Below the pieces are notes generated by a model, which was not told the origin of the DNA, did no database searches, and saw only the letters and a list, made by a program, of their open reading frames with translations. The position numbers were made by a program, and so were the translations under genes. Source: JAUXIQ01 sp030620925 [NCBI: Nitrospinota bacterium] (GTDB lineage Bacteria > JAUXIQ01). Taken from it: DNA of 9,738 bases. This document shows positions 1 through 8,913 of this stretch, piece after piece. The stretch is from NCBI GenBank assembly GCA_030620925.1, contig JAUXIQ010000046.1, positions 1 through 9,738 on the forward strand. Reading direction: 5' to 3'. Numbering within the stretch: position 1 is the first letter of the stretch; the number at the start of each line of letters is the position of its first letter.

Positions 1-752
1 AGGACTGCTTAGCCTTTATTGAGACCGGGGAGGTCAATTTCCTCCTCGTGTATATGATAGACCGGATCGGTAGGTTTATAGACCGCGATGATCGCCACCG
101 TGTTATTCGCACTTTGGAGAAGGTGTCCAAGACCAGCGTCGAATCACCCCATGATGGCCTGTACCCCCACGACGATTACGACCGAATGAGCAACCTGGAA
201 GATGCCCTTGATGATAGCCGCCGTGATAATGTCACGCGGGAATCCGGGTAAGCGATGGGCATATGAAAGCCCGTCTAAAGGGTAAGTTCAGCGGTGGCTC
301 AAAGCCATACGGCATTGGGCATATTGAAGAAAAAGGATACTTCCCAGTGAAGGAGGAAGTGCCCGCGCTCAAGGAGATTTTTAACCGGATTATCGATGGC
401 ATGGGAATATTCCCCCTCCGGGATTACTTGAACGCTAACTTGGACAAGTTCCCTAAACGCGAGCGGTATTACAAAGGGAAGTTAACAAAATGGAACGATA
501 CTGGCCTCCGCTACATTGTCAATAACGACCTCTATTTCACCGGCATCATAACACCCACCAGGGAAGGCCTCCGACCGATGGATACCAAAATTAAATTGTT
601 CGATGAGGAGACGGTTAAACGCGCCCGTAGGGAAATGGCCGCCCGCCATAAACAGCCCAAAAACCCCGACCAGCAGTTGGAACCCCGCTTTGGCCCTCCT
701 TTATTACACGGTATCGTCCGATGCGACCTCTGCGGCACCAATATGGGCAAGC
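1..752 (+). pseudogene. Large serine recombinase (resolvase/invertase family), frameshifted and truncated at both visible ends
   Basis: This is the remains of a site-specific serine recombinase, the class that integrates and excises mobile elements through a serine-DNA intermediate. Frame 3 is open from base 3 and gives the second half of the catalytic resolvase domain (FLLVYMIDRIGR, then DDSRRDNVTRES). The catalytic Ser would lie upstream of the window. Frame 3 stops at 249-251. The homology continues for about 12 codons in frame 1 from 247 (GKRWAYESPSK), then in frame 2 from about 278 (GKFSGGSKPYGIG). So at least two frameshifts break the gene. Frame 2 holds the recombinase domain (EEVPALKEIFNRIIDG) and the first CxxCG of the zinc ribbon (LLHGIVRCDLCGTNM). 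Recognisable homology ends at about 750, before the second Cys pair. The frame then runs out of register through a URO-D fragment to a stop at 908-910. The family call is secure; the gene is non-functional unless the frameshifts are sequencing errors. Confidence 0.88.
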
Positions 753-914
753 AACCCGGACGACGTGAGGGAAGAGGTCAAGCGGCGGATAGAAGTGCTC
801 GGCCCCGGCGGAGGCTACGTGTGCACGTCCGTGCACAATATCCAGAAAGAAGTTCCCCCGGAAAACATCTGCGCCATGCTGGAAGCGGCCCGCGAATTCG
901 GCGTATATAATTGA
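753..914 (+). pseudogene. C-terminal fragment of a URO-D-like protein
   Basis: Frame 3 from about 753 to the TGA at 912-914 encodes some 53 residues beginning NPDDVREEVKRRIEVLGPGG and continuing YVCTSVHNIQKEVPPENI, ending EAAREFGVYN. This is the characteristic last part of the uroporphyrinogen decarboxylase fold family (PF01208), which includes HemE and corrinoid-dependent methyltransferases such as MtaA and MtbA. The GPGGGY...HNIQ...VPPENI pattern is conserved across that family, so the fragment cannot separate decarboxylase from methyltransferase. No start codon or upstream three-quarters of the gene is present; the sequence immediately 5' is the cut recombinase zinc ribbon. The natural C-terminus is intact. 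Its stop codon overlaps the left arm of a palindromic repeat. It is a relic joined by deletion or recombination, not a functional gene. Confidence 0.85.
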
Positions 915-962
915 GGGAACCTTTTAGCAAAACGGTTCCCTCTAACTCCTTCCCAAAAATTT
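913..962 (+). repeat. Palindromic intergenic repeat, copy R1
   Basis: The arms GAGGGAACC (913-921) and GGTTCCCTC (934-942) are perfect 9-bp complements. They extend by TTTT/AAAA after a single bulged C, leaving the loop AGC. A 3' tail, TAACTCCTTCCCAAAAATTT, follows. The same stem-plus-tail design occurs at 8788-8842 (same orientation) and 8861-8908 (opposite). It sits exactly at the stop of the URO-D fragment, so it probably served as a terminator or as a repeat placed at gene ends. There is no run of T directly after the stem, so it is not a textbook intrinsic terminator. Confidence 0.75.
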
Positions 963-1103
963 CGTGTTTGTCGATCCGAGTCGCCTTGAAATAGGGTTAT
1001 CAAACCAGTATTTACTTTTTGTCACTCTCAGGTGCATCCTTGGGGAACCCTGCGAAACGCGGGACTATAGAAGAGTTTCCCCAGAGAATATTTTAGCAGT
1101 GGC

Positions 1104-1125
1104 GAACCCTGCTCAGAACAGGTTC
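1104..1125 (-). terminator. Imperfect hairpin downstream of the MBL-fold gene
   Basis: GAACCCTG (1104-1111) pairs with CAGGTTC (1119-1125) with one bulged C, giving a 7-bp stem 16 bp beyond the stop of the minus-strand MBL gene. A second, weaker pairing of GGGGAA with TTCCCC occurs at about 1040-1082. No strong T tract follows on the minus strand, so termination is only a possibility. The rest of 963-1140 shows no coding signal: the open frame there matches no family I know. Confidence 0.25.
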
Positions 1126-1140
1126 TTGTGTTTGCCCAAT

Positions 1141-2085
1141 TCAGAAGACGAACTTGGTGCCCACGCAGTTATGCACGAAAGCTTCGGGCATCTCCTGCCT
1201 GAAGCGGAACATGGCGGTTGAGCCTGTGCAATGGGTGGGGACCACGATTTTGGGGTTTATCTTTTTTATCTCGCTGATGGTCCTGTCGATGATGGGCTCG
1301 AACAGCGGGCCTGTGAGATGAAAACCACCGATCATAGAATGCACTTATTTCTCGCCGGTCAGCTCCATGGCGTAAAGGGCGCTGTTGATTATCCCCGCAT
1401 GGGCGCAGCCTGAGAGCACCACCAGCCCTTTATCTTTTACTTTTATGGCAATCGCCTGGTCGTCTTTCACGAGGGGGTCCGGCTTTACTTCTCCTCCTAT
1501 TTCAGCATAGTTCGGCGGAAAACCTTTCTCAAAATCGGTCACCCTGGGTATTTCGCCGGTTACCAGCAGGGAATCACCTGCCAATAGATAGGGCTCTCTG
1601 TTCTTGATAACCGCTGCCCCCGCCTCCTCCAGCTCCGCCTCCTTGAACTCGGGGAAAATTACCTCTTCCCTGTTGGGTATCCTTATGCGTCTTTTGAGAA
1701 AAGCGTCGGGATGAACGATGAAGGGGATACTCTTTTCCGGCAGGCTTTCTACCAGCTTTATCATGGCCGCGTTATGGTCGGGGTGCCCGTGAGAAAGGAC
1801 GATAGCTTCTACCCCGTTGAGGTCCAGCTCCAGCGATTTGAGGTTATGGAAAATGCTATCCTTGGTCATCCCAGCGTCCATGAGGATTTTGTGCGTTTCC
1901 CCTTCCAGTGTTGTCTCTATCAGGGTCGCGAAACCGTGCTCGGCGAGCAGAGCCTCGGCTAGTTTTCCCCCTCTGCTGAGGGTGGGGCGCTGGACCTCCT
2001 CCGTACCGCTCATGAAGGAGTCTGCGTAATTGTCCACCAGGATGGTTATGACCAATTGTTCAACTTCTTTCAGGCTCACCTTCAT
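1141..2085 (-). pseudogene. MBL-fold metallohydrolase interrupted by one in-frame TAA
   Basis: A 314-codon reading frame for a metallo-beta-lactamase-fold hydrolase. It resembles the group often annotated as 7,8-dihydropterin-6-yl-methyl-4-(beta-D-ribofuranosyl)aminobenzene 5'-phosphate synthase. The metal motif HGHPDH is at residues 99-104, further ligand candidates are Cys-Ala-His229 in SGCAHAGIIN, and a late His lies in PTHCTG (about residue 285). After residue 246 (ELTGEK) a TAA at 1345-1347 is followed in the same frame by VHSMIGGFHL and 67 codons that complete the family's normal C-terminus (VGTKFVF, stop at 1141). One substitution of a Lys, Gln or Glu codon would explain it. The start ATG overlaps the upstream hot-dog gene's TGA (ATGA) and has GGGGAG 6 nt upstream. 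A GTG immediately after the TAA could restart translation and yield two pieces, but the active site would then be split between chains. Substrate unknown. Confidence 0.85.
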
Positions 2086-2531
2086 GATTTCTCCCCTTTA
2101 TCATCGCGGCTGCGCAACCGGACGGTGCACAGCCCTTTGACCGGCCGCTGGCCGTCTTCGTCCTGGAGGTAGACCTCGCATTCCACGAGGTTCTCCCCGC
2201 TCTCGGATTTTTTTTCGGTGATTACCCCGTAACAGGTGAATTCTATTCCCGTCCGGACGAAACCTCTGAAATTTACGTTAAGGTTCACCAGGGAGTCGGC
2301 GGGGAAGTATGCGGTAACGATCTGGGATAGAAGACCGAAGCTGATGTTACCGGGGATGACGGCGCGTTCCAGGCCTTCGGTTTTTGCGTAGTCGTCATCC
2401 ACGAACCGTTTGTGAAACAGCCCCACCGAATCTAGGTAGGCCCGCACGTCGTCGGTTGTGAATATGCGGGTCAATGGCGGGAGCATGTCTCCCGGGTTTA
2501 CGTCTTCGAAATGGATTTCTTCAGCGGCCAT
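2082..2531 (-). CDS. MaoC-like hot-dog protein (second of a pair)
   Basis: A single-hot-dog protein of the MaoC/(R)-hydratase superfamily, about 149 residues. The opening (IHFEDVNPGD) and central segment (AVIPGNISFGLLSQIVTAYF) fit the family, whose members hydrate enoyl-CoA or enoyl-ACP thioesters. The region that normally reads GDxNPxH instead reads VGLFHKRFVDDDYA, so by-eye alignment puts Leu and Phe at the catalytic Asp and His. Hydratase activity is therefore doubtful. I prefer the ATG at 2529-2531 (MAAEEI) because GGGTGA at 2536-2541 lies just upstream. ATG codons at 2546 and 2543 would add five residues but lack a ribosome site. It follows the other hot-dog gene by 17 bp and overlaps the MBL start by 4 bp, so the three are translationally linked. 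The two hot-dog proteins may form a heterodimer like mycobacterial HadA/HadB; this is inferred from adjacency and domain types. Confidence 0.82.
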   Translation of the reverse strand: MAAEEIHFEDVNPGDMLPPLTRIFTTDDVRAYLDSVGLFHKRFVDDDYAKTEGLERAVIPGNISFGLLSQIVTAYFPADSLVNLNVNFRGFVRTGIEFTCYGVITEKKSESGENLVECEVYLQDEDGQRPVKGLCTVRLRSRDDKGEKS

Positions 2532-2548
2532 ACATTCACCCATCATTA

Positions 2549-3013
2549 TTATTCTTTTGATTCCAGCTCGTCAACGTCTCCCTGGAGCATGGTGGAGCGT
2601 ATTATGGCCACCACCTCGCCGTCACTGTCGCTGTATGTCGCTTCACGAACGACGAAAACCAGCTTACCGCTGCGCCCGGTTTTCTCAAACACATCGGCTA
2701 TCTTGCTCTTTACGGTGATAACGTCGCCCGGTCTCAGGGGTCTTTTCTGTTCCAGCTCCTGCCCGGCGAACAGCTCTATGCGGCCATGTTCTATCCTTAT
2801 TTCGGGATAACCCTCCGGAAGCAAAATCTGATTGAAGAAACCGGGGGGAGCGATGATGTCGTCGTAACCGAGCTGGGCGGCGGCATTGTCGTCATAGAAG
2901 GCCGGGTTTACCTCTTTGTGCACCTTGCTGAAATTGATGATCTCTTCCTTGGTTACCTCATAGGTGCCTAATTCGTATTCTTTGCCGATGATGCTTTTAT
3001 CGAATTCCACCAC
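2549..3013 (-). CDS. MaoC_N / FAS1-type dehydratase-like hot-dog protein (first of a pair)
   Basis: A 154-residue protein matching the N-terminal MaoC-like dehydratase domain (PF13452): IGKEYELGTYEVTKEEI near the start, then NPAFYDDNAAAQLGYDD at about residues 36-52 and IAPPGFF. The C-terminal half has the expected LRPGDVITVKSKIADVFEKT strand pattern. In this family the domain often acts as a substrate-binding, non-catalytic partner, as in HadA of the HadAB dehydratase. Consistent with that, the conserved NP is present but the following His is replaced (NPAFYD). Translation starts at GTG 3013; GGAGGTG at 3021-3027, 7 nt upstream, is a near-perfect ribosome site. It lies 31 bp after the nitronate monooxygenase-like gene and 17 bp before the partner hot-dog gene. 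Probable role is binding or processing of an acyl-CoA made by the operon's CoA-transferase; the substrate is not deducible. Confidence 0.85.
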   Translation of the reverse strand: MVEFDKSIIGKEYELGTYEVTKEEIINFSKVHKEVNPAFYDDNAAAQLGYDDIIAPPGFFNQILLPEGYPEIRIEHGRIELFAGQELEQKRPLRPGDVITVKSKIADVFEKTGRSGKLVFVVREATYSDSDGEVVAIIRSTMLQGDVDELESKE

Positions 3014-3044
3014 TGTTAATCACCTCCCGCGATGCCGCCGCGCA

Positions 3045-3998
3045 TCATACGGCGGTCTGCCTTATCTGTTGGTACAAGTTTTCGGTGATCGATCTGCTCC
3101 CCTCCATTATTTCCTCGATTACCTCTTTGACGCTTTGGATTCGGTCAATTACACCTGCCACCTGCCCCACGCTTACTATGCCTTTGCAGACGTCTCCGCT
3201 GATGGGGTCAGTGGCGTGTTCTTCGGTGAATTTCTTTATTTCATCGGGGGAGGCTCCGCTTTTTTCCAGCTCCAGGAGCTGCGAAACGGCCTCGCTTTTC
3301 AGGGCCCGCATGGGGCTTATGCCTCTTTCGATGATGGTGGTGTCTGTATCAGAAGCATCCGTTACGGCTTTTTTGTAATCCTCGCTGACGGCGCATTCTA
3401 CGGTAGCCAGAAAACGCGTGCCCATCTGCACTCCTTCGGCGCCCAGCGCCATTGCGGCCAGGTAGCCCCTGGCATCACCTATCCCTCCCGCGGCCACCAC
3501 CGGAATGTCCACGGCGTCGGCCACCTGGGGGATGAGGGTCATGGTGGTCACTTCATCGTAGCTGAGGTGCCCGCCCGATTCTACGCCTTCGGCTATGACC
3601 GCGTCCACTCCCGCCTGTTCCACCTTCACGGCCAGCTTTACGCTGGGGACCACGTGCAGCACGTTTATACCCGCCTCTTTCAGCCGGTCGATGAACCGGC
3701 CCGGGTCGCCGGCGGAGGTGGTTATGCACTTCAGCCCTTCTTCGATGACTATTTCAATGGCCTCCGGCGCGTTGGGCCTCCTCAGCGATATATTTACGCC
3801 GAAGGGCTTGTCCGTGAGCTTCTTGGCTTTTCTTATCTGCTCGCACAGCTCGTCTCCCGGCAGGGAGGAGGCTGCTATGAGGCCGAACCCACCGGCGTCA
3901 GAGACGGCGGCGGCTATCTCCGCCATGGTGATGAACCGCATGGGGCCCTGGATGATGGGATGTTCGGTGCCCAGCAGCCGGGTAACTCTGTTTTCCAT
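3045..3998 (-). CDS. Nitronate monooxygenase/FabK-like FMN protein, paralog 1
   Basis: A 317-residue TIM-barrel flavoprotein of the NMO family (PF03060), which covers nitronate monooxygenases, FabK enoyl-ACP reductases and many uncharacterised FMN enzymes. Visible features are PIIQGPM at residues 14-20, PFGVNI at 65-70, TSAGDP at 94-99, the FMN-phosphate loop GGIGDARG at 171-178, and EGVQMGTRFLAT at 188-199. His144, the position of the active-site His in the family, is present, but its motif reads GGHLS where paralog 2 has GGHNG. That may mean a different substrate. The two paralogs align end to end with roughly half their residues identical by eye. The gene lies 59 bp after the HD gene and 31 bp before the hot-dog pair. 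In anaerobes an FMN-dependent reductase or isomerase role on an acyl-CoA is at least as likely as nitronate oxidation; this is inference. Confidence 0.88.
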   Translation of the reverse strand: MENRVTRLLGTEHPIIQGPMRFITMAEIAAAVSDAGGFGLIAASSLPGDELCEQIRKAKKLTDKPFGVNISLRRPNAPEAIEIVIEEGLKCITTSAGDPGRFIDRLKEAGINVLHVVPSVKLAVKVEQAGVDAVIAEGVESGGHLSYDEVTTMTLIPQVADAVDIPVVAAGGIGDARGYLAAMALGAEGVQMGTRFLATVECAVSEDYKKAVTDASDTDTTIIERGISPMRALKSEAVSQLLELEKSGASPDEIKKFTEEHATDPISGDVCKGIVSVGQVAGVIDRIQSVKEVIEEIMEGSRSITENLYQQIRQTAV

Positions 3999-4057
3999 TC
4001 CGGAGGCCTTTACAAGCTTTCTTTAGAGGTGAAAGGCTAAATGATCTTCCGACGACT

Positions 4058-4633
4058 CTATTTTTTTATCGGTTTGGGGGTGGCGCCGGTGAACACATCT
4101 CGCACGGTCAAACCCGCATGTTTTCTGAGCATGGAATCGGCATGGCAATGGTCCATGGAGCGGATGATCTCGAGCTCCAGTGTCCTCACCGGAATTTCCC
4201 CCGGTGTGTTGTGATATTGGACTATGTTGGTGATTTCGGCGGGTAGCCCGGCTTTCATGCAGATGTTCGCTCCCAGCTGCGGATGGAGGAGGTATTTGCC
4301 GATCTCAGTCTTTCCTCCCTTTGCTGAGTATTCCAGCGGCTTACCCATGTCGTGCAAGACAGCCCCGGCGATAACGTAATCAAGGTTGAGCTCGACTTTT
4401 TCCTGTTCGATCAGCGCCCTGCCCAGTGCCATAGCGATTTTAGCCGTACCCCGGCAGTGATCGACGTTGGTGATAAATTCCGCCACACCAGGAATCCAGG
4501 GCATGTCTTCTATTTTCTCCCAGTCGCTCTCTTTCAGGGATAATAGCCAGGCTCGGGCCGCTCCCTCTTTCACGGTCTCGTCCGTTATGGAATCGAGTTC
4601 AGGGAAAAGTTTTAATATATAGTCTTTGTCCAT
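4058..4633 (-). CDS. HD-domain metal-dependent phosphohydrolase
   Basis: A 191-residue single-domain HD-superfamily protein. The metal-ligand set can be followed along the chain: His59 (VDHCRGTAKIA), His94-Asp95 (VLHDMGKPLE), His117 (LLHPQLGA), His141 (QYHNTPGE) and Asp161 (SMDHCHAD). This HD-AVLHDMGK arrangement is typical of stand-alone HD hydrolases acting on nucleotides or phosphomonoesters; no sensor or second domain is present. I chose ATG 4633 over the GTG at 4642 because GGAG (4642-4645) sits 8 nt before the ATG and overlaps the GTG. The preceding gap of 81 bp is one of the longer ones in the cluster and contains a weak promoter candidate, so the gene may also be transcribed on its own. 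A phosphohydrolase is an odd member of an acyl-CoA operon and its role there is unknown. Confidence 0.85.
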   Translation of the reverse strand: MDKDYILKLFPELDSITDETVKEGAARAWLLSLKESDWEKIEDMPWIPGVAEFITNVDHCRGTAKIAMALGRALIEQEKVELNLDYVIAGAVLHDMGKPLEYSAKGGKTEIGKYLLHPQLGANICMKAGLPAEITNIVQYHNTPGEIPVRTLELEIIRSMDHCHADSMLRKHAGLTVRDVFTGATPKPIKK

Positions 4634-4662
4634 TGGTCTCACTCCATCTAATCAACTGTCTA

Positions 4663-4692
4663 CATATAACATTTTTCTTTCAGAGGCGGCAA
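4663..4692 (-). promoter_or_regulatory. Weak sigma-70-like promoter candidate before the HD gene
   Basis: On the minus strand TTGCCG (4692-4687) and TATATG (4668-4663) are separated by 18 bp, each matching four of six consensus bases. It lies in the 81-bp gap between the CoA-transferase stop and the HD start. It could provide internal transcription of the last five genes. Such matches arise by chance, so this is tentative. Confidence 0.28.
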
Positions 4693-4714
4693 GTTTTATA
4701 AGATTATTATCGGG

Positions 4715-5938
4715 TTACTCCGCCGGCCTTGTTGAAGAACGTTCAGGCACCGGGTGAGATGAGGCAGTGAGAACCACCACTTTTTCTTTGAGGGCTTCGA
4801 TCTCGCGTTTATCGTATCCCAGCCAATCCAGGATGTCTTCGGTGTGTTCGCCCAGGAGAGGGGCCGGAGATTCCACAGAAACAGGCGTTTTCTCCATTTT
4901 GAGGGGGAACCCCAGGGTTTGCAAATCGCCGGCGACGGGGTGTGTCTGCTTGATGAGAAGCTGATTAGCCAGGATGTGCTCGTCGTTAAAGAGGTCGTCG
5001 ATGGTGTTCACCGGCCCACAGGGAACACCGGCCTCCTCCAGGAGGTCGGTCCACTCCGGGCTCGTTTTCTGTTGAAGTATTTTCTGAAAAACGGGTATGA
5101 GTTGTTGAGCGTTATGGAACCTGTTGGCGTGCGAGTTGAACCTCGGATCATCGCCCAGTTCTTCGACCCCCAGGGTCCGGCACAATTTTTTAAACAGACC
5201 TTCGTTCAGGACGGCTACGTTGATGTATCCGTCACTGGTCTGGTACGTCCTGTAAGCGGGGTGATTACCGGTGGTACCATCGAAGGCGGGTTGTGACCTG
5301 TCTTCGCCCATCACCATGCGGTGGGCCTGCATGGCCATTGCCGAGCCGAGAAGCGAGGTATCCACCCGCTGCCCCTCGCCTGTCTCCTGTCTGTTATACA
5401 GTGCGGCCAGAATGCCGACAGCGGCCATCAGGCCGGAGGGCATATCTACCACTGAAGATTTATCCCTCTGGGGCGGGTTCTCGCCGCGGTCCATGACCGA
5501 AGCATAGCCCTGGAGCACGAGCTCGTAGGCCGCTTTATCGGTGTGGGGGCCTGCGGTGCCGAAACCGGTGGTGGAAGAATAGATGAGGCGCGGGTTGATG
5601 GCAGAGAGGGTGTCGTAGCCCAACCCCAGCTTTTCCATGGTGCCCGGCCGGGAGTTTTCCATGAATACGTCAGACCGTGCGGCGAGTTTAAGGACGATAT
5701 CCCTGCCTTCCGCCTTTTTGAGGTCCACCGCCATGCTCTTCTTGTTGCGGTTCATTCCCAGGAACAAGTGGCTCTCGGTCTTCTGGAACGGAGGTCCCAG
5801 GGAACGCCCGCTGTCGCCGTGAAGCGGTTCGATTTTTATCACCTGAGCGCCCATGTCCGCAAGCAGCATGGACGCGAAAGGGCCCGCCAGGACCGTGGTG
5901 AGGTCAATCACAGTTATGCCGTGCAGAGGGCCACTCAT
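4715..5938 (-). CDS. Family III CoA-transferase (CaiB/BaiF type)
   Basis: A 407-residue member of the CoA-transferase family III (PF02515), which moves CoA between a donor thioester and an acid such as formate/oxalate, carnitine or bile acids. The N-terminus (ITVIDLTTVLAGPFASMLLA) and the segment MGAQVIKIEPLHGDSGR (29-45) are typical. NRNKKSMAVDLK at 63-74, and SRPGTMEKLGLGYD at 96-109, also fit. The conserved catalytic Asp, which forms the aspartyl-CoA anhydride, is Asp165 in SSVVDMPSG. The C-terminal swapped domain has PCGPVNTIDDLF. Length is normal for the family, with a short unconserved Ser/Pro/Arg tail. GAGG lies about 10 nt before the ATG. It sits between the two nitronate monooxygenase-like paralogs, 64 bp after the first. 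It is the likely entry enzyme of the pathway, activating an organic acid at no ATP cost; which acid cannot be told. Confidence 0.93.
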   Translation of the reverse strand: MSGPLHGITVIDLTTVLAGPFASMLLADMGAQVIKIEPLHGDSGRSLGPPFQKTESHLFLGMNRNKKSMAVDLKKAEGRDIVLKLAARSDVFMENSRPGTMEKLGLGYDTLSAINPRLIYSSTTGFGTAGPHTDKAAYELVLQGYASVMDRGENPPQRDKSSVVDMPSGLMAAVGILAALYNRQETGEGQRVDTSLLGSAMAMQAHRMVMGEDRSQPAFDGTTGNHPAYRTYQTSDGYINVAVLNEGLFKKLCRTLGVEELGDDPRFNSHANRFHNAQQLIPVFQKILQQKTSPEWTDLLEEAGVPCGPVNTIDDLFNDEHILANQLLIKQTHPVAGDLQTLGFPLKMEKTPVSVESPAPLLGEHTEDILDWLGYDKREIEALKEKVVVLTASSHPVPERSSTRPAE

Positions 5939-5967
5939 AAAGCATAATCCTCACAAGTCAGTTTAAG

Positions 5968-5990
5968 TCCGCCGTGCGGATTTTATAATC
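5968..5990. other. Small hairpins in the 64-bp gap before the CoA-transferase gene
   Basis: TCCGC/GCGGA (5968-5972 with 5976-5980) forms a 5-bp stem, and the overlapping GGATT/AATCC forms another with loop TTAT. They lie in the spacer between paralog 2 and the CoA-transferase gene. They could affect RNA processing within the operon, but are short enough to be chance. Confidence 0.2.
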
Positions 5991-6002
5991 CAACGGCAAT
6001 GT

Positions 6003-6953
6003 TTAGATATCCAGTTTTTCCGAGATTCCCGAAAGGACGCCTGATGCGTCGTTGACCAGCTCGTCAATGACTTCTTTGACTGATTTAACTTCCCGCACCA
6101 GGCCCGCTATCTGCCCCGCCATCAACGAACCTTCATCCAGATTCCCTTCGATGAGGGCGGCTTTGGTGCGGCCTGAGCCTATGAACTCAAGCAGTTCCTC
6201 ATGGGGTGCACCGGCATGCTCTCTTTCCAGGATCTGTTCAGCGAGCTTATTTTTAAGCATGCGCACGGGCGCGTGGCTCCTGCCGGTTATTACCGTAGAG
6301 GTATCAGAGGATGCCAGGATCGACTCTTTAACGTTTTGATGGGCGACGCATTCTTTGGTGGCTATGAACCTGGTCCCCATCTGGACTCCCTCTGCGCCCA
6401 GGGCCAGGGCGGCTATCAAGCCTCTGGAGTCTCCGAGTCCCCCCGCCGCCACCACCGGGACGTCGATGGCGTCGACAACCTGGGGGATGAGGGCCATAGT
6501 GGTTATCTCGTCCACTCCGTTGTGTCCTCCGGCTTCGTATCCTTCCGCTACTACGGCGTTTACCCCGGCGTCCGCAGCTTTCTGTGCCATGCGAACGGAG
6601 GGGACCACGTGCATGACTTTGAGTCCGGCCTCCTGGAGCCAGCCGGTAAACTTGGCCGGGTTGCCGGCAGAGGTTATGGCTACGTCCACCTTCTTGTCCG
6701 CCACCATCTCCAACACTCCTTGAGACAGGGGGTCGATGAGGGGGATGTTCACACCGAACGATTTGTCGGTAAGCTCCCGCATGGTCTCAATATCTTCCGC
6801 CAACTGTTCTTTGGATTGGCTCCCTCTCAGAACGCCCATTCCACCCGCGTTACAGACCGCGGCAGCCAGCTCCGTGGTGGATATCCATACCATACCCCCT
6901 TGCAGTATGGGGTACTTTATTCCAAGAAGTTCGCAGATTCTGTTCTTGGCCAT
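6003..6953 (-). CDS. Nitronate monooxygenase/FabK-like FMN protein, paralog 2
   Basis: A 316-residue FMN TIM-barrel protein of the same family as the gene at 3045-3998, colinear with it over the whole length. Key features are PILQGGMVWIS at residues 15-25, SFGVNIPL (65-72), and TSAGNPAKF (94-102). His144 sits in AGGHNGVDE, the canonical GGHxG form of the family's active-site motif. GGLGDSRG (171-178) and EGVQMGTRFIAT (188-199) bind the FMN phosphate. The start ATG at 6953 has AAGGAGA 5 nt upstream, the strongest ribosome site in this part of the operon. It follows the PHP gene by 88 bp and precedes the CoA-transferase by 64 bp. The family includes 2-nitropropane dioxygenase-type enzymes and FabK; the actual substrate is unknown, and the operon suggests an unsaturated acyl-CoA or a nitro/nitronate acid. 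Confidence 0.9.
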   Translation of the reverse strand: MAKNRICELLGIKYPILQGGMVWISTTELAAAVCNAGGMGVLRGSQSKEQLAEDIETMRELTDKSFGVNIPLIDPLSQGVLEMVADKKVDVAITSAGNPAKFTGWLQEAGLKVMHVVPSVRMAQKAADAGVNAVVAEGYEAGGHNGVDEITTMALIPQVVDAIDVPVVAAGGLGDSRGLIAALALGAEGVQMGTRFIATKECVAHQNVKESILASSDTSTVITGRSHAPVRMLKNKLAEQILEREHAGAPHEELLEFIGSGRTKAALIEGNLDEGSLMAGQIAGLVREVKSVKEVIDELVNDASGVLSGISEKLDI

Positions 6954-7020
6954 TACCGTCTCCTTTTCGATCTTTTTTAAGTTGCTGTCATTTGTAAACG
7001 AAAAGAGTTTTCATTGTGTG

Positions 7021-7035
7021 CCGCTCGCAGAGCGG
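7021..7035. other. Perfect 6-bp hairpin in the PHP/paralog 2 spacer
   Basis: CCGCTC and GAGCGG flank a GCA loop, just past the PHP stop codon on the minus strand. No T run follows in either direction (minus strand continues CACACAATG), so it is not a classical terminator. It could be a partial terminator or an RNA-stabilising element that lowers expression of the downstream genes relative to the PHP gene. Confidence 0.35.
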
Positions 7036-7041
7036 TTAAAT

Positions 7042-7689
7042 TTAAGATTTCGTTTCCGCCAGCCATAACGCCCGGAAGTTGCCGCTCTTCAGAGAGTCTA
7101 TAAGGTCGGAGTTGTCCTTGATTTCGACTTCGAAATGCGTGAGGCAGGCGGCGAACTCCCTCAAATAATGAGCGTCGCTGCCGCCGATTCCTCGAAATCT
7201 GCCGTTGTGCAGTGCCATGAAAGCCAGCGCCCTTTCGTTTTCCTTCCTGGAGTTGGTGCCGTTGAGGCTTTCTATGATATTGATGCTGTTCAGGTGGTCG
7301 AGAGCCATGCCGAAACTGTTTGCCGAGTAGCGGAAGGGATGGGTGGGAACGATAACGCCCCCCATAGACTCTATCTTCTCTATCCTGTCATTACCGCGCA
7401 GGTCATACTTCGTCTTCATATACTCTTTATAGTGCTCCTCGGTATCAAGGATTATGAGAGCGTGTCCGTAATAGAGGCTGTCTTCCATGATGGTGAGCAC
7501 GGTGAGGCCGCTTTCTTCCAGCAGTTTTTGATCGGGTATGGGCTCTTTGTAGCGGTCGTGCTCGGAGATACATATGCCGTCTATCTGATAACCTTCCTCT
7601 TTCAATTCCACTGCTTGTTTCATATAGTCGTTGAGGGTTGCAGAGGAATCCCAGGAGCCCTCTGCGTGCACGTGCATGTCAATGTACAT
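7042..7689 (-). CDS. PHP-domain metal-dependent phosphoesterase
   Basis: A 215-residue PHP (polymerase and histidinol phosphatase) domain protein, close to the size of stand-alone members. The four PHP motifs are in order: DMHVHAEGSWDSSAT with His6 and His8, ISEHD with Glu43-His44-Asp45, HPFRY with His117, and GGSDAH with Asp172 and His174. Candidate intermediate ligands are Glu69 and His76 (SLYYGHALI). This set binds two or three metal ions and cleaves phosphoesters; relatives include the YciV/RNase AM nucleotidases and many of unknown substrate. No DNA polymerase part is attached. GAGGA lies about 13 nt before the ATG, a rather long spacing. It is the first gene of the minus-strand cluster, directly behind the best promoter in the window. 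Together with the HD protein it gives the operon two separate phosphohydrolases. Confidence 0.88.
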   Translation of the reverse strand: MYIDMHVHAEGSWDSSATLNDYMKQAVELKEEGYQIDGICISEHDRYKEPIPDQKLLEESGLTVLTIMEDSLYYGHALIILDTEEHYKEYMKTKYDLRGNDRIEKIESMGGVIVPTHPFRYSANSFGMALDHLNSINIIESLNGTNSRKENERALAFMALHNGRFRGIGGSDAHYLREFAACLTHFEVEIKDNSDLIDSLKSGNFRALWLAETKS

Positions 7690-7759: not shown

Positions 7760-7788
7760 ATACTAATTTAAATTCCACGCCGTTTCAA
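7760..7788 (-). promoter_or_regulatory. Sigma-70-like promoter of the eight-gene minus-strand operon
   Basis: Minus-strand TTGAAA (7788-7783) and TAGTAT (7765-7760) are spaced by exactly 17 bp in an AT-rich patch. They match the -35 box at five of six and the -10 box at four of six positions. Transcription would start near 7753, giving a leader of about 64 nt before the PHP ATG. It lies in the only divergent spacer of the window, where a promoter is required. Confidence 0.6.
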
Positions 7789-7807: not shown

Positions 7808-8785
7808 ATGAACGGGGCGAATATCGAGCAGCGTTTTGTGGGAACCATAGTGGGTGCGGCGGTGGGGGACGCATTGGGCGCACCCTTCGAGGGCTGGTCG
7901 GCGGCGGCCATGAAAGACGTGCCCGATCTGTTTGATGGATACAGGAGGATCGGCGCGTACCCCTCAGGGCAAGACACTGATGATACGCAGCTCACCCTGG
8001 CCCTGGCGGAATCGCTGATAAATCGGCGGGGAGTTGACGGAGCGGATATAGCGGAGAAATACGCTGACCTGTGGCGCACGGAGACCATCGTGGGGCAGGG
8101 GGCGAGCTGCCACGAAGCGATGATGAAGCTTATAAGCGGGCGGTCTGATTGGACTCAGTGCGGCACCGAGGAGGGCAGGGCGGGGAACGGTACGGCCATG
8201 CGGGTGAGCCCCATCGGTCTCTGGGACTGCGATAGCCGGGAGGATATCCCCCGCCATGCCGAGGTATCCAGCATAATTACCCATAAAGACCCCAGGGCCA
8301 CCGCGGGGGCCATAGCAGTGGCGGCGGCAGTGGCTTACTGCATCAATTACGACGGATTTTTAGTGAGGGATTTTCTTCACAGGATAAGTGCGCTGGTAGA
8401 ACCCTATAGTGAGGAGTTCGCGGGGCATTTAGTGGAGCTGGGGGAGTGGATGAAATTAAATAATGAGGAAGATGCGCTCTACAGGATCGCCGCAGCCGGT
8501 TGGCGGAGACCAGAAGACCGCCTGGATTATATAACCCCCTTCGTTATCCCCACCGTGCTTATGGCTCTATACGCATTCATGAGAAGCCCGGACGATTATT
8601 GCCGCAGCGTGGAGAGGGCGATTCGGGCCGGAGGCGACGTCGATACCACGGGGGCCATCACCGGGGCCATCAGCGGCGCTTTCAATGGCATAGAAGCCAT
8701 CCCCGCTCACCTGGTCTCAGGACTGAAGGACAGCGAATACATAAAAGGTGTTGCCACCCGTCTGTTCGAAGCGAAACAAGGATAA
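7808..8785 (+). CDS. ADP-ribosylglycohydrolase family protein (DraG/ARH type)
   Basis: A 325-residue member of the ADP-ribosylglycohydrolase family (PF03747), cytoplasmic enzymes that remove ADP-ribose from proteins, DNA or small molecules with two divalent metals. The N-terminus has the family start GTIVGAAVGDALGAPFEG (residues 12-29). Metal ligands Thr57-Asp58-Asp59 lie in QDTDDTQLTLALAESL. GNGTAMRVSPIGL is at 127-139, THKDPRATAGA at 158-168, and the second metal motif GGDVDTTGAITGA at 275-287, where Asp277 and Asp279 are the ligands and Val replaces the more common Thr. Length is normal. The ribosome site is weak (GGGATTGGGCC before the ATG). It is transcribed away from the operon and ends 2 bp before a strong palindrome. 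DraG proper controls nitrogenase, but no DraT or nif gene is visible, so that specific role is not supported. Confidence 0.92.
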   Translation: MNGANIEQRFVGTIVGAAVGDALGAPFEGWSAAAMKDVPDLFDGYRRIGAYPSGQDTDDTQLTLALAESLINRRGVDGADIAEKYADLWRTETIVGQGASCHEAMMKLISGRSDWTQCGTEEGRAGNGTAMRVSPIGLWDCDSREDIPRHAEVSSIITHKDPRATAGAIAVAAAVAYCINYDGFLVRDFLHRISALVEPYSEEFAGHLVELGEWMKLNNEEDALYRIAAAGWRRPEDRLDYITPFVIPTVLMALYAFMRSPDDYCRSVERAIRAGGDVDTTGAITGAISGAFNGIEAIPAHLVSGLKDSEYIKGVATRLFEAKQG

Positions 8786-8787
8786 TC

Positions 8788-8842
8788 GGGGGGAACCTTT
8801 CTGTAGAAAAGTTCCCCCCAAACCCCCTTCCAAAGACTTTTG
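8788..8842 (+). repeat. Palindromic intergenic repeat, copy R2
   Basis: GGGGGGAAC (8788-8796) and GTTCCCCCC (8811-8819) form a 9-bp stem, extended after one mismatch by TTT/AAA, with loop CTGTAG. The tail AAACCCCCTTCCAAAGACTT follows. It begins 2 bp after the stop of the ADP-ribosylglycohydrolase gene and probably ends its transcript. Confidence 0.8.
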
Positions 8843-8860: not shown

Positions 8861-8908
8861 AGTTTTGGGAGGGAGTTTGAGGGAACCCTTTTTCAAAAGG
8901 GTTCCCTC
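8861..8908 (-). repeat. Palindromic intergenic repeat, copy R3 (inverted)
   Basis: GAGGGAACCCTTTT (8879-8892) and AAAAGGGTTCCCTC (8895-8908) are perfect 14-bp complements around a TC dinucleotide, the most perfect palindrome in the window. The tail lies on its left (8861-8878), so the unit points toward R2 and reads out of the acyl-CoA dehydrogenase gene, whose stop is 5 bp away. Stem and tail match R1 read in reverse. On the minus strand it is the likely terminator of that gene. Confidence 0.82.
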
Positions 8909-8913
8909 AGCCA

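What the first reader, a model, noticed from the sequence alone, without database searches (positions are those of the whole stretch)
1141..7689. Eight-gene operon mixing CoA-thioester enzymes with three metal-dependent hydrolases
PHP, NMO, CaiB, HD, NMO, MaoC_N, MaoC and MBL genes lie on one strand with gaps from 88 bp down to -4 bp behind one good promoter. I do not recognise this combination as a described pathway. A CoA-transferase, FMN enzymes and hot-dog proteins suggest breakdown of an unusual acid; PHP, HD and MBL hydrolases hint at a phosphorylated or nucleotide-like substrate or a regulatory nucleotide.
Basis: inference. Interest (0 to 1): 0.62.

Follow-up and report, generated by a model that had tools for sequence, protein, structure and literature searches.

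The report
Unusual acid-breakdown operon, one broken gene
Eight neighbouring genes in an uncultured bacterium look like a one-off set for breaking down an acid attached to coenzyme A; all the parts are known types, but one gene is cut short and another pair lacks the usual active-site residues.

Summary
The eight genes are on one strand with the gaps stated. Three corrections. (1) The last gene (MBL) has an in-frame TAA at 1345-1347; the seven closest homologues have a sense codon there and conserved His motifs follow it. (2) The hot-dog pair MaoN-Mao2 is a common adjacent pair, but here both members lack the Asp/His hydratase dyad. (3) The 'one good promoter' is little better than chance. I found no copy of the eight-gene order in 80 CaiB loci or around sampled matches of NMO1 (290 genomes), MaoN, Mao2, HD and MBL (386 each); PHP and NMO2 were not searched that way. 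Only sub-modules recur: MaoN-Mao2 widely; MaoN-Mao2 with a CoA-transferase on two plasmids; MaoN-Mao2 with PHP in one genome. HD relatives lie near citrate synthase/aconitase/isocitrate dehydrogenase genes in 15 of 28 loci examined (none of four plasmid loci), which favours organic acids over nucleotides. Best reading: a lineage-specific catabolic operon in which CaiB makes an acyl-CoA, FabK-like flavoenzymes change its oxidation state and metal hydrolases cut it, as in the thn and ipd clusters. Substrate unknown. New variant of a known kind; moderate to low interest.

The parts
7042..7689 (-). PHP-family metal hydrolase, CehA/McbA-like (215 aa); motifs HVH, EHD, THPF, GGSDAH present
   Evidence: PF13263 35.4 bits; PF02811 20.1 bits, below cut-off; NF038032 66.8 bits, cut-off 80
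6003..6953 (-). NMO1: FabK-like FMN enzyme; His of the AGGH motif kept
   Evidence: TIGR03151 353.7 bits, cut-off 453.1; 7l00 FabK E 1.3e-91
4715..5938 (-). CaiB: family III CoA-transferase; Asp in VVDMPSGL aligned with the Asp of the solved succinate-hydroxymethylglutarate CoA-transferase
4058..4642 (-). HD-domain protein with H, HD, H, H, D motifs; many relatives lie near citrate/isocitrate-type genes
3045..3998 (-). NMO2: second FabK-like FMN enzyme (46% to NMO1); His of the SGGH motif kept
2549..3013 (-). MaoN: HadA-type hot-dog subunit (FAS1_DH_region), Glu/Phe at the Asp/His positions
2082..2546 (-). Mao2: HadB-type hot-dog subunit, Leu/Phe at the catalytic Asp/His positions
1141..2085 (-). 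MBL-fold hydrolase gene, interrupted: 246 codons, in-frame TAA, 67 further conserved codons, terminal stop
1345..1347 (-). in-frame TAA stop inside the MBL gene (codon 247)
7760..7788 (-). promoter-like site before PHP (TTGAAA-17-TAGTAT, 9 of 12); such sites are near chance level in this window

Best explanation
A lineage-specific catabolic operon (or two adjoining transcription units) for a carboxylic acid, probably cyclic, branched or dicarboxylic, handled as a CoA thioester. CaiB would charge the acid by moving CoA from another acyl-CoA. The two FabK-like flavoenzymes would add or remove a double bond next to the thioester or in a ring. PHP, HD and, when intact, MBL would be metal hydrolases that open a ring, lactone or ester or clear side products. 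The hot-dog heterodimer MaoN-Mao2 would bind or reshape the acyl-CoA without ordinary hydratase chemistry. Shown: gene order, families, retained and lost catalytic residues, the stop codon. Inferred: co-transcription, substrate and reaction order.
For: CaiB is closest among solved proteins to succinate-hydroxymethylglutarate CoA-transferase with the Asp aligned. NMO1 aligns end to end with FabK and keeps the His, while the genome has what reads as a fatty-acid operon with its own FabK (plsX-FabK-FabG-FabF-rnc on C33, names read by eye), so the window copies are extra. IpdC, a flavoprotein 30% identical to FabK, acts on a ring CoA thioester in steroid catabolism, in a regulon with a CoA-transferase-like hydrolase (PMC5380842, passages). 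The thn operon of naphthalene degraders has adjacent MaoC genes, a metallo-dependent hydrolase put forward but untested for ring opening, and a CoA-transferase (PMC12016498, part 1 of section 12). Two plasmid MaoN-Mao2 pairs lie beside CoA-transferases, acyl-CoA dehydrogenases and a thiolase or lipid-transfer protein. HD relatives lie near citrate synthase/aconitase/isocitrate dehydrogenase genes in 15 of 28 stretches, 14 of them within 3 kb, and both HD matches in this genome lie beside CaiB.
Against: No locus examined elsewhere has CaiB, NMO, HD and MaoC together. The run has no thiolase or hydroxyacyl-CoA dehydrogenase. The hot-dog pair lacks its dyad and MBL is truncated, so part of the set may not work. 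Gaps of 59-88 bp leave room for separate units. None of 28 HD relatives in other genomes lies beside CaiB, and four HD relatives on plasmids lie beside neither CaiB nor citrate-type genes.
Confidence: 0.45

Rival explanations
1. The eight genes are neighbours by chance in one MAG: a real small unit (NMO2-MaoN-Mao2-MBL or just MaoN-Mao2) next to unrelated same-strand genes, in a region that is partly decaying.
For: No conserved order in the loci examined; MBL carries a stop; a recombinase remnant runs into a URO-D tail at the left end; the promoter scan is near chance.
Against: Eight co-directional genes with no terminator-like site on that strand inside the run; several share CoA-thioester chemistry; HD-CaiB adjacency occurs twice in the genome.
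Confidence: 0.33
2. A reductive lipid-type module: HadAB-like dehydratase plus FabK-like enoyl reductases that lengthen or reduce an acyl chain, for example for a special lipid or polyketide starter.
For: MaoN and Mao2 resemble HadA and HadB, and the NMOs resemble FabK.
Against: Both hot-dog proteins lack the dyad; no ketosynthase, ketoreductase or ACP in the run; CaiB and three hydrolases do not belong to such a module.
Confidence: 0.1
3. A nucleotide- or regulatory-phosphate pathway: PHP, HD and MBL act on phosphorylated substrates.
For: HD, PHP and MBL folds include phosphoesterases (recalled, no call).
Against: HD relatives lie near organic-acid genes (15 of 28) or beside a carbamoyltransferase (4 of 28); PHP is CehA/McbA-like; the other five genes are acyl-CoA or flavin enzymes.
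Confidence: 0.05

Closest known systems
thn operon of anaerobic naphthalene degraders N47 and NaphS2 (PMC12016498; passages and part 1 of section 12 seen)
   Same: Two adjacent MaoC genes (thnH, thnI), a metallo-dependent hydrolase (thnN) and a CoA-transferase (thnP) in one CoA-thioester operon
   Different: Heteromeric ThnHI is reported as an active enoyl-CoA hydratase, while the window pair lacks the dyad; ThnP is a family I transferase (PMC11659651, passages), the window's is family III; thn has thiolases, dehydrogenases and reductases, the window has FabK-like enzymes, HD, PHP and MBL
ipd (KstR2) steroid-ring genes with IpdC (PMC5380842; start of abstract and passages seen)
   Same: A FabK-like flavoprotein acting on a ring CoA thioester, in a regulon with a CoA-transferase-like enzyme
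   Different: IpdAB is a glutaconate CoA-transferase-like hydrolase, not CaiB; two FabK-like genes here; the other genes differ
HadAB/HadBC (3R)-hydroxyacyl-ACP dehydratase
   Same: Adjacent HadA-type and HadB-type hot-dog subunits
   Different: HadB has the catalytic residues; window Mao2 has Leu and Phe in their place
MaoN-Mao2 beta-oxidation-type gene runs on plasmids (Cupriavidus oxalaticus L359, Rhodococcus qingshengii L360)
   Same: A CoA-transferase (CaiB/BaiF by name in L359, 'CoA transferase' twice in L360) near a MaoN-Mao2 pair
   Different: Those have acyl-CoA dehydrogenases, SDRs and a thiolase or lipid-transfer protein, and no HD, PHP, MBL or NMO among the genes listed (the plasmid gene tables are incomplete)
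   Same: Same HD family, next to CoA- or carboxylate-handling genes
   Different: There near CoA-ligase alpha, citrate synthase, aconitase and isocitrate dehydrogenase genes; here beside CaiB; the two HDs of this genome form their own branch, with long branches that may attract each other

Membership tests
Family III (CaiB/Frc) CoA-transferase | CoA_transf_3 fold over the full length | tested here: met
   PF02515 410.6 bits, residues 5-366
Family III (CaiB/Frc) CoA-transferase | Asp aligned with the Asp of a solved transferase | tested here: met
   VVDMPSGL aligned with the Asp motif of 9br6; that this Asp is catalytic is recalled
Family III (CaiB/Frc) CoA-transferase | CoA transfer between acids | not testable with these tools
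   needs an enzyme assay
FabK enoyl-ACP reductase (TIGR03151 equivalog) | score above the curated cut-off of 453.1 | tested here: not met
   NMO1 353.7, NMO2 340.2 bits
FabK-like branch of the NMO family | end-to-end alignment with FabK and the active-site His | tested here: met
   for NMO1; for NMO2 the TIGR03151 match over residues 3-306 and the SGGH motif
MaoC/HadAB hydratase-dehydratase | adjacent HadA-type and HadB-type hot-dog subunits | tested here: met
   pair adjacency recurs
MaoC/HadAB hydratase-dehydratase | Asp/His catalytic dyad in one subunit | tested here: not met
   Mao2 Leu/Phe, MaoN Glu/Phe; 18 of 23 Mao2-like genes keep both residues
CehA/McbA PHP metallohydrolase (NF038032) | score above the curated cut-off of 80 | tested here: not met
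   66.8 bits
HD-domain metal protein | Pfam HD match and H...HD...D motif | tested here: met
   PF01966 52 bits; motif positions
MBL-fold hydrolase | HxHxDH plus the later His motifs in one ORF | tested here: not met
   HGHPDH and GCAHAG before, GGFHL and PTHCTG after the in-frame TAA
Conserved operon | same gene order in other genomes | tested here: not met
   not seen in the loci; a sample, with no close relative held
Conserved operon | single transcript | not testable with these tools
   needs RNA

The most novel reading that the evidence does not exclude
The cluster encodes an undescribed CoA-dependent route in a deep bacterial lineage. In it a dyad-less hot-dog heterodimer has taken on a new non-hydratase role with FabK-like flavoenzymes, and an HD protein of the family found near citrate/isocitrate genes works on acyl-CoA esters of di- or tricarboxylic acids, a function I do not know for any HD protein.
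Probability: 0.13. Interest if true: 0.62.

Novelty: new variant of a known kind. Interest (0 to 1): 0.34.

Why it matters
If it is one pathway, it would add an acid-degradation route from a lineage with no other genome held at phylum level here. The dyad-less hot-dog pair and the HD family near CoA-carboxylate genes are both testable claims about enzymes whose usual names ('dehydratase', 'HD phosphohydrolase') are probably wrong or unproven. If it is not one pathway, it is a reminder that a same-strand run in a fragmented MAG is weak evidence of an operon.

Tried and rejected
Same-order search by CaiB across genome contigs: the best 80 of 176 confirmed loci were kept, many of them cut by contig ends. 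One (L047) holds three kinds of window gene (CaiB, acyl-CoA dehydrogenases, a 28% NMO); it is not the cluster. The highest-identity CaiB piece (L079, 53% over 209 residues) is a GntR-CaiB pair beside unrelated redox genes (read by eye).

Phylum-level search: only this genome is held in its phylum. RpoB puts it nearest a Nitrospinota-labelled MAG at 66% identity among the 23 other rows; that MAG's phylum (5 genomes) had no HD match at 1e-12, an empty answer without a positive control.

PHP and NMO2 were never searched across other genomes, and CaiB only by the pattern scan, so absence of the order rests on the other five genes and on CaiB.

Single-sequence structure predictions of HD and Mao2 had mean pLDDT 39.1 and 40.6 and were discarded; no fold search was run.

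The idea that the genome recodes stops was dropped. All 10 matches with an inner stop have it at or within 14 codons of the end of the matched stretch, so the MBL stop is not explained by a general code change.

The idea that every dyad-less Mao2 has an inert partner was dropped: in G114 the MaoN-type partner has Asp and His at the aligned places.

HD relatives on plasmids: 98 records match. Four were opened, from Halocatena, Natribaculum, Bosea and Haloferax; none has CaiB or citrate-type genes among its listed neighbours (amino-acid transporter genes in Bosea, hydantoinase/oxoprolinase, EthD and cupin genes in Haloferax). This goes against a single role for the family.

Paper searches for the gene combination: one search found none; one search listed one paper (PMC9978346, sludge communities), not opened. 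For this HD family with citrate-type genes: searches found none; one search listed 8 of 31 papers holding two of three terms, proteomics or physiology by title, none opened.
Full report
WHAT IS THERE. The window is the whole of contig C234 of a 2.50-Mb, 445-contig MAG, 89.5% complete. Eight ORFs lie on the minus strand in the order PHP, NMO1, CaiB, HD, NMO2, MaoN (FAS1_DH_region), Mao2 (MaoC), MBL. Purine-rich stretches that could serve as ribosome sites precede several starts, clearest before MaoN (gggaggtg) and MBL (ggggaga) (read by eye). None of the scan's 3 minus-strand terminator-like sites lies inside the run. The promoter scan as a whole (11 sites against 6.2, sd 2.9) is weak support for 'one good promoter'.

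THE BROKEN MBL GENE. The MBL frame stops at codon 247 (TAA, 1345-1347) and continues in the same frame to a second stop at 1141-1143. The 15 homologous places found in 12 other genomes (matches at 1e-40 in 13 of 386, this genome included) have no inner stop. In the seven closest, a sense codon stands at the stop, and identity after it (45-59%) is about that before it (42-53%). The motifs GGFHL and PTHCTG come after the stop. So the stop is recent, an assembly or sequencing error, or read through; these calls cannot separate the three. It is not a genome-wide recoding.

THE HOT-DOG PAIR. MaoN and Mao2 resemble HadA and HadB. Against HadB, Mao2 has Leu for the Asp and Phe for the His. Against the second domain of 4v12, MaoN has Glu and Phe. 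Of 23 Mao2-like genes matched in 386 genomes (24 rows; one gene is in two pieces), 18 keep both residues and 5 do not: the window, G261, G122, G391 and G114. G261, G122 and G391 belong to one family (f95). Partners of those three genes have Glu and Tyr; the G114 partner has Asp and His, so there the active residues may sit in the other subunit. In the heteromeric MaoC enzymes described in PMC11321319 (passages) one partner is inert and the other has the dyad; in the window both look inert. Pair adjacency recurs in 9 of 17 non-own MaoN loci and 2 of 3 own paralogues. Of nine plasmid records with a Mao2 match I opened the first two: both pairs sit in same-strand runs with a CoA-transferase and acyl-CoA dehydrogenase. 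The Cupriavidus Mao2 keeps Asp and His; the Rhodococcus one keeps His and has Asn for Asp.

THE HD PROTEIN. 53 of 386 genomes, this one included, have a match at 1e-13. I looked at 28 of the 52 others: 15 have CoA-ligase alpha, citrate synthase-like, aconitase-like or isocitrate/isopropylmalate dehydrogenase matches in the stretch (14 within 3 kb, one about 7 kb away), 4 lie by a carbamoyltransferase, 9 have neither, and none has CaiB (Pfam checks of example neighbours). The 28 are not all independent: two are near-identical proteins from one genus, and some share a family. Four HD relatives on plasmids have neither kind of neighbour listed. In this genome both HD matches lie beside CaiB (order HD-CaiB-CaiB on C24, CaiB-HD in the window). 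On balance this favours an organic-acid/CoA role over a nucleotide role, but the family does not have one fixed setting.

CAIB AND THE FABK-LIKE PAIR. The genome has 20 CaiB matches and 11 NMO matches, so each family alone is not remarkable. The FabK in what reads as the fatty-acid operon on C33 is 51-52% identical to NMO1. IpdC shows that a FabK-like enzyme can act on a ring CoA thioester (PMC5380842). FabX shows another NMO-family enzyme working as a dehydrogenase/isomerase (PMC8626469, listing and passages).

PHP. It matches a CehA/McbA-type model below the cut-off. In G114 the order MaoN, Mao2, HAD, PHP is found, with PHP 31% identical over nearly the full length. Of the 20 MaoN loci it is the only one with a PHP match. 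PHP itself was not searched across genomes.

SYNTENY TEST. CaiB: 80 loci, none with the set. NMO1: 35 of 290 genomes matched at 1e-80, this one included; of 36 non-own places 20 were fetched, and none had CaiB, HD, MaoN, Mao2, PHP or MBL matches; one (L220) had an acyl-CoA dehydrogenase. MaoN: 20 places (17 non-own); CaiB, HD and MBL in none, an NMO in one (L270, about 4 kb away), PHP in one (L269), acyl-CoA dehydrogenase in five. MBL: 12 places, none with CaiB, NMO, HD, MaoC or PHP; acyl-CoA dehydrogenase in one. HD: as above. The samples are spread over the domain, mostly one or two genomes per family, because no closer relative is held; a sister species could still share the order.

READING. 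The parts fit breakdown of an acid as a CoA thioester. The nearest described layouts are the thn operon (adjacent MaoC genes, a metallo-dependent hydrolase put forward for ring opening, a CoA-transferase; part 1 of section 12 of PMC12016498) and the ipd genes. The combination in the window was not found elsewhere, and two of its parts look altered, so I give 0.45 to a catabolic operon and 0.33 to chance neighbours with a small real core.

Noticed in passing
window 3-914 (+): A recombinase fragment (phrog_95, PF07508) runs into the C-terminal part of a URO-D gene in another frame (744-911): a remnant of an insertion or rearrangement.
   Followed up: partly
window 913-942, 8788-8819, 8878-8909: Three similar hairpins (GAGGGAACC...GGTTCCCTC type), one after the URO-D tail and two after the ADP-ribosylglycohydrolase gene; they may be terminators or a repeat family.
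   Followed up: partly
window 7808-8785 (+): ADP-ribosylglycohydrolase (DraG-like, below the DraG cut-off) divergent from PHP; they share a 118-bp spacer.
   Followed up: no
L336, L346, L347, L349, L350, L352 and others: HD-domain family repeatedly near CoA-ligase/citrate synthase/aconitase/isocitrate dehydrogenase genes in several families; paper searches found nothing, and no listed title dealt with it.
   Followed up: partly
L162, L351, L353, L354: The same HD family beside carbamoyltransferase genes; three of these four genomes are of one family.
   Followed up: no
L104 (G000 C24) 1-5642: HD followed by two tandem CaiB genes, then an FAD-dependent flavoprotein and an enoyl-CoA hydratase (the last two read by eye): a second HD-CaiB cluster in this genome.
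   Followed up: partly
L170 (G000 C33) 13883-16361: Two genes that look like 2-hydroxyacyl-CoA dehydratase/benzoyl-CoA reductase subunits (read by eye), hinting at an anaerobic aromatic or amino-acid life style.
   Followed up: no
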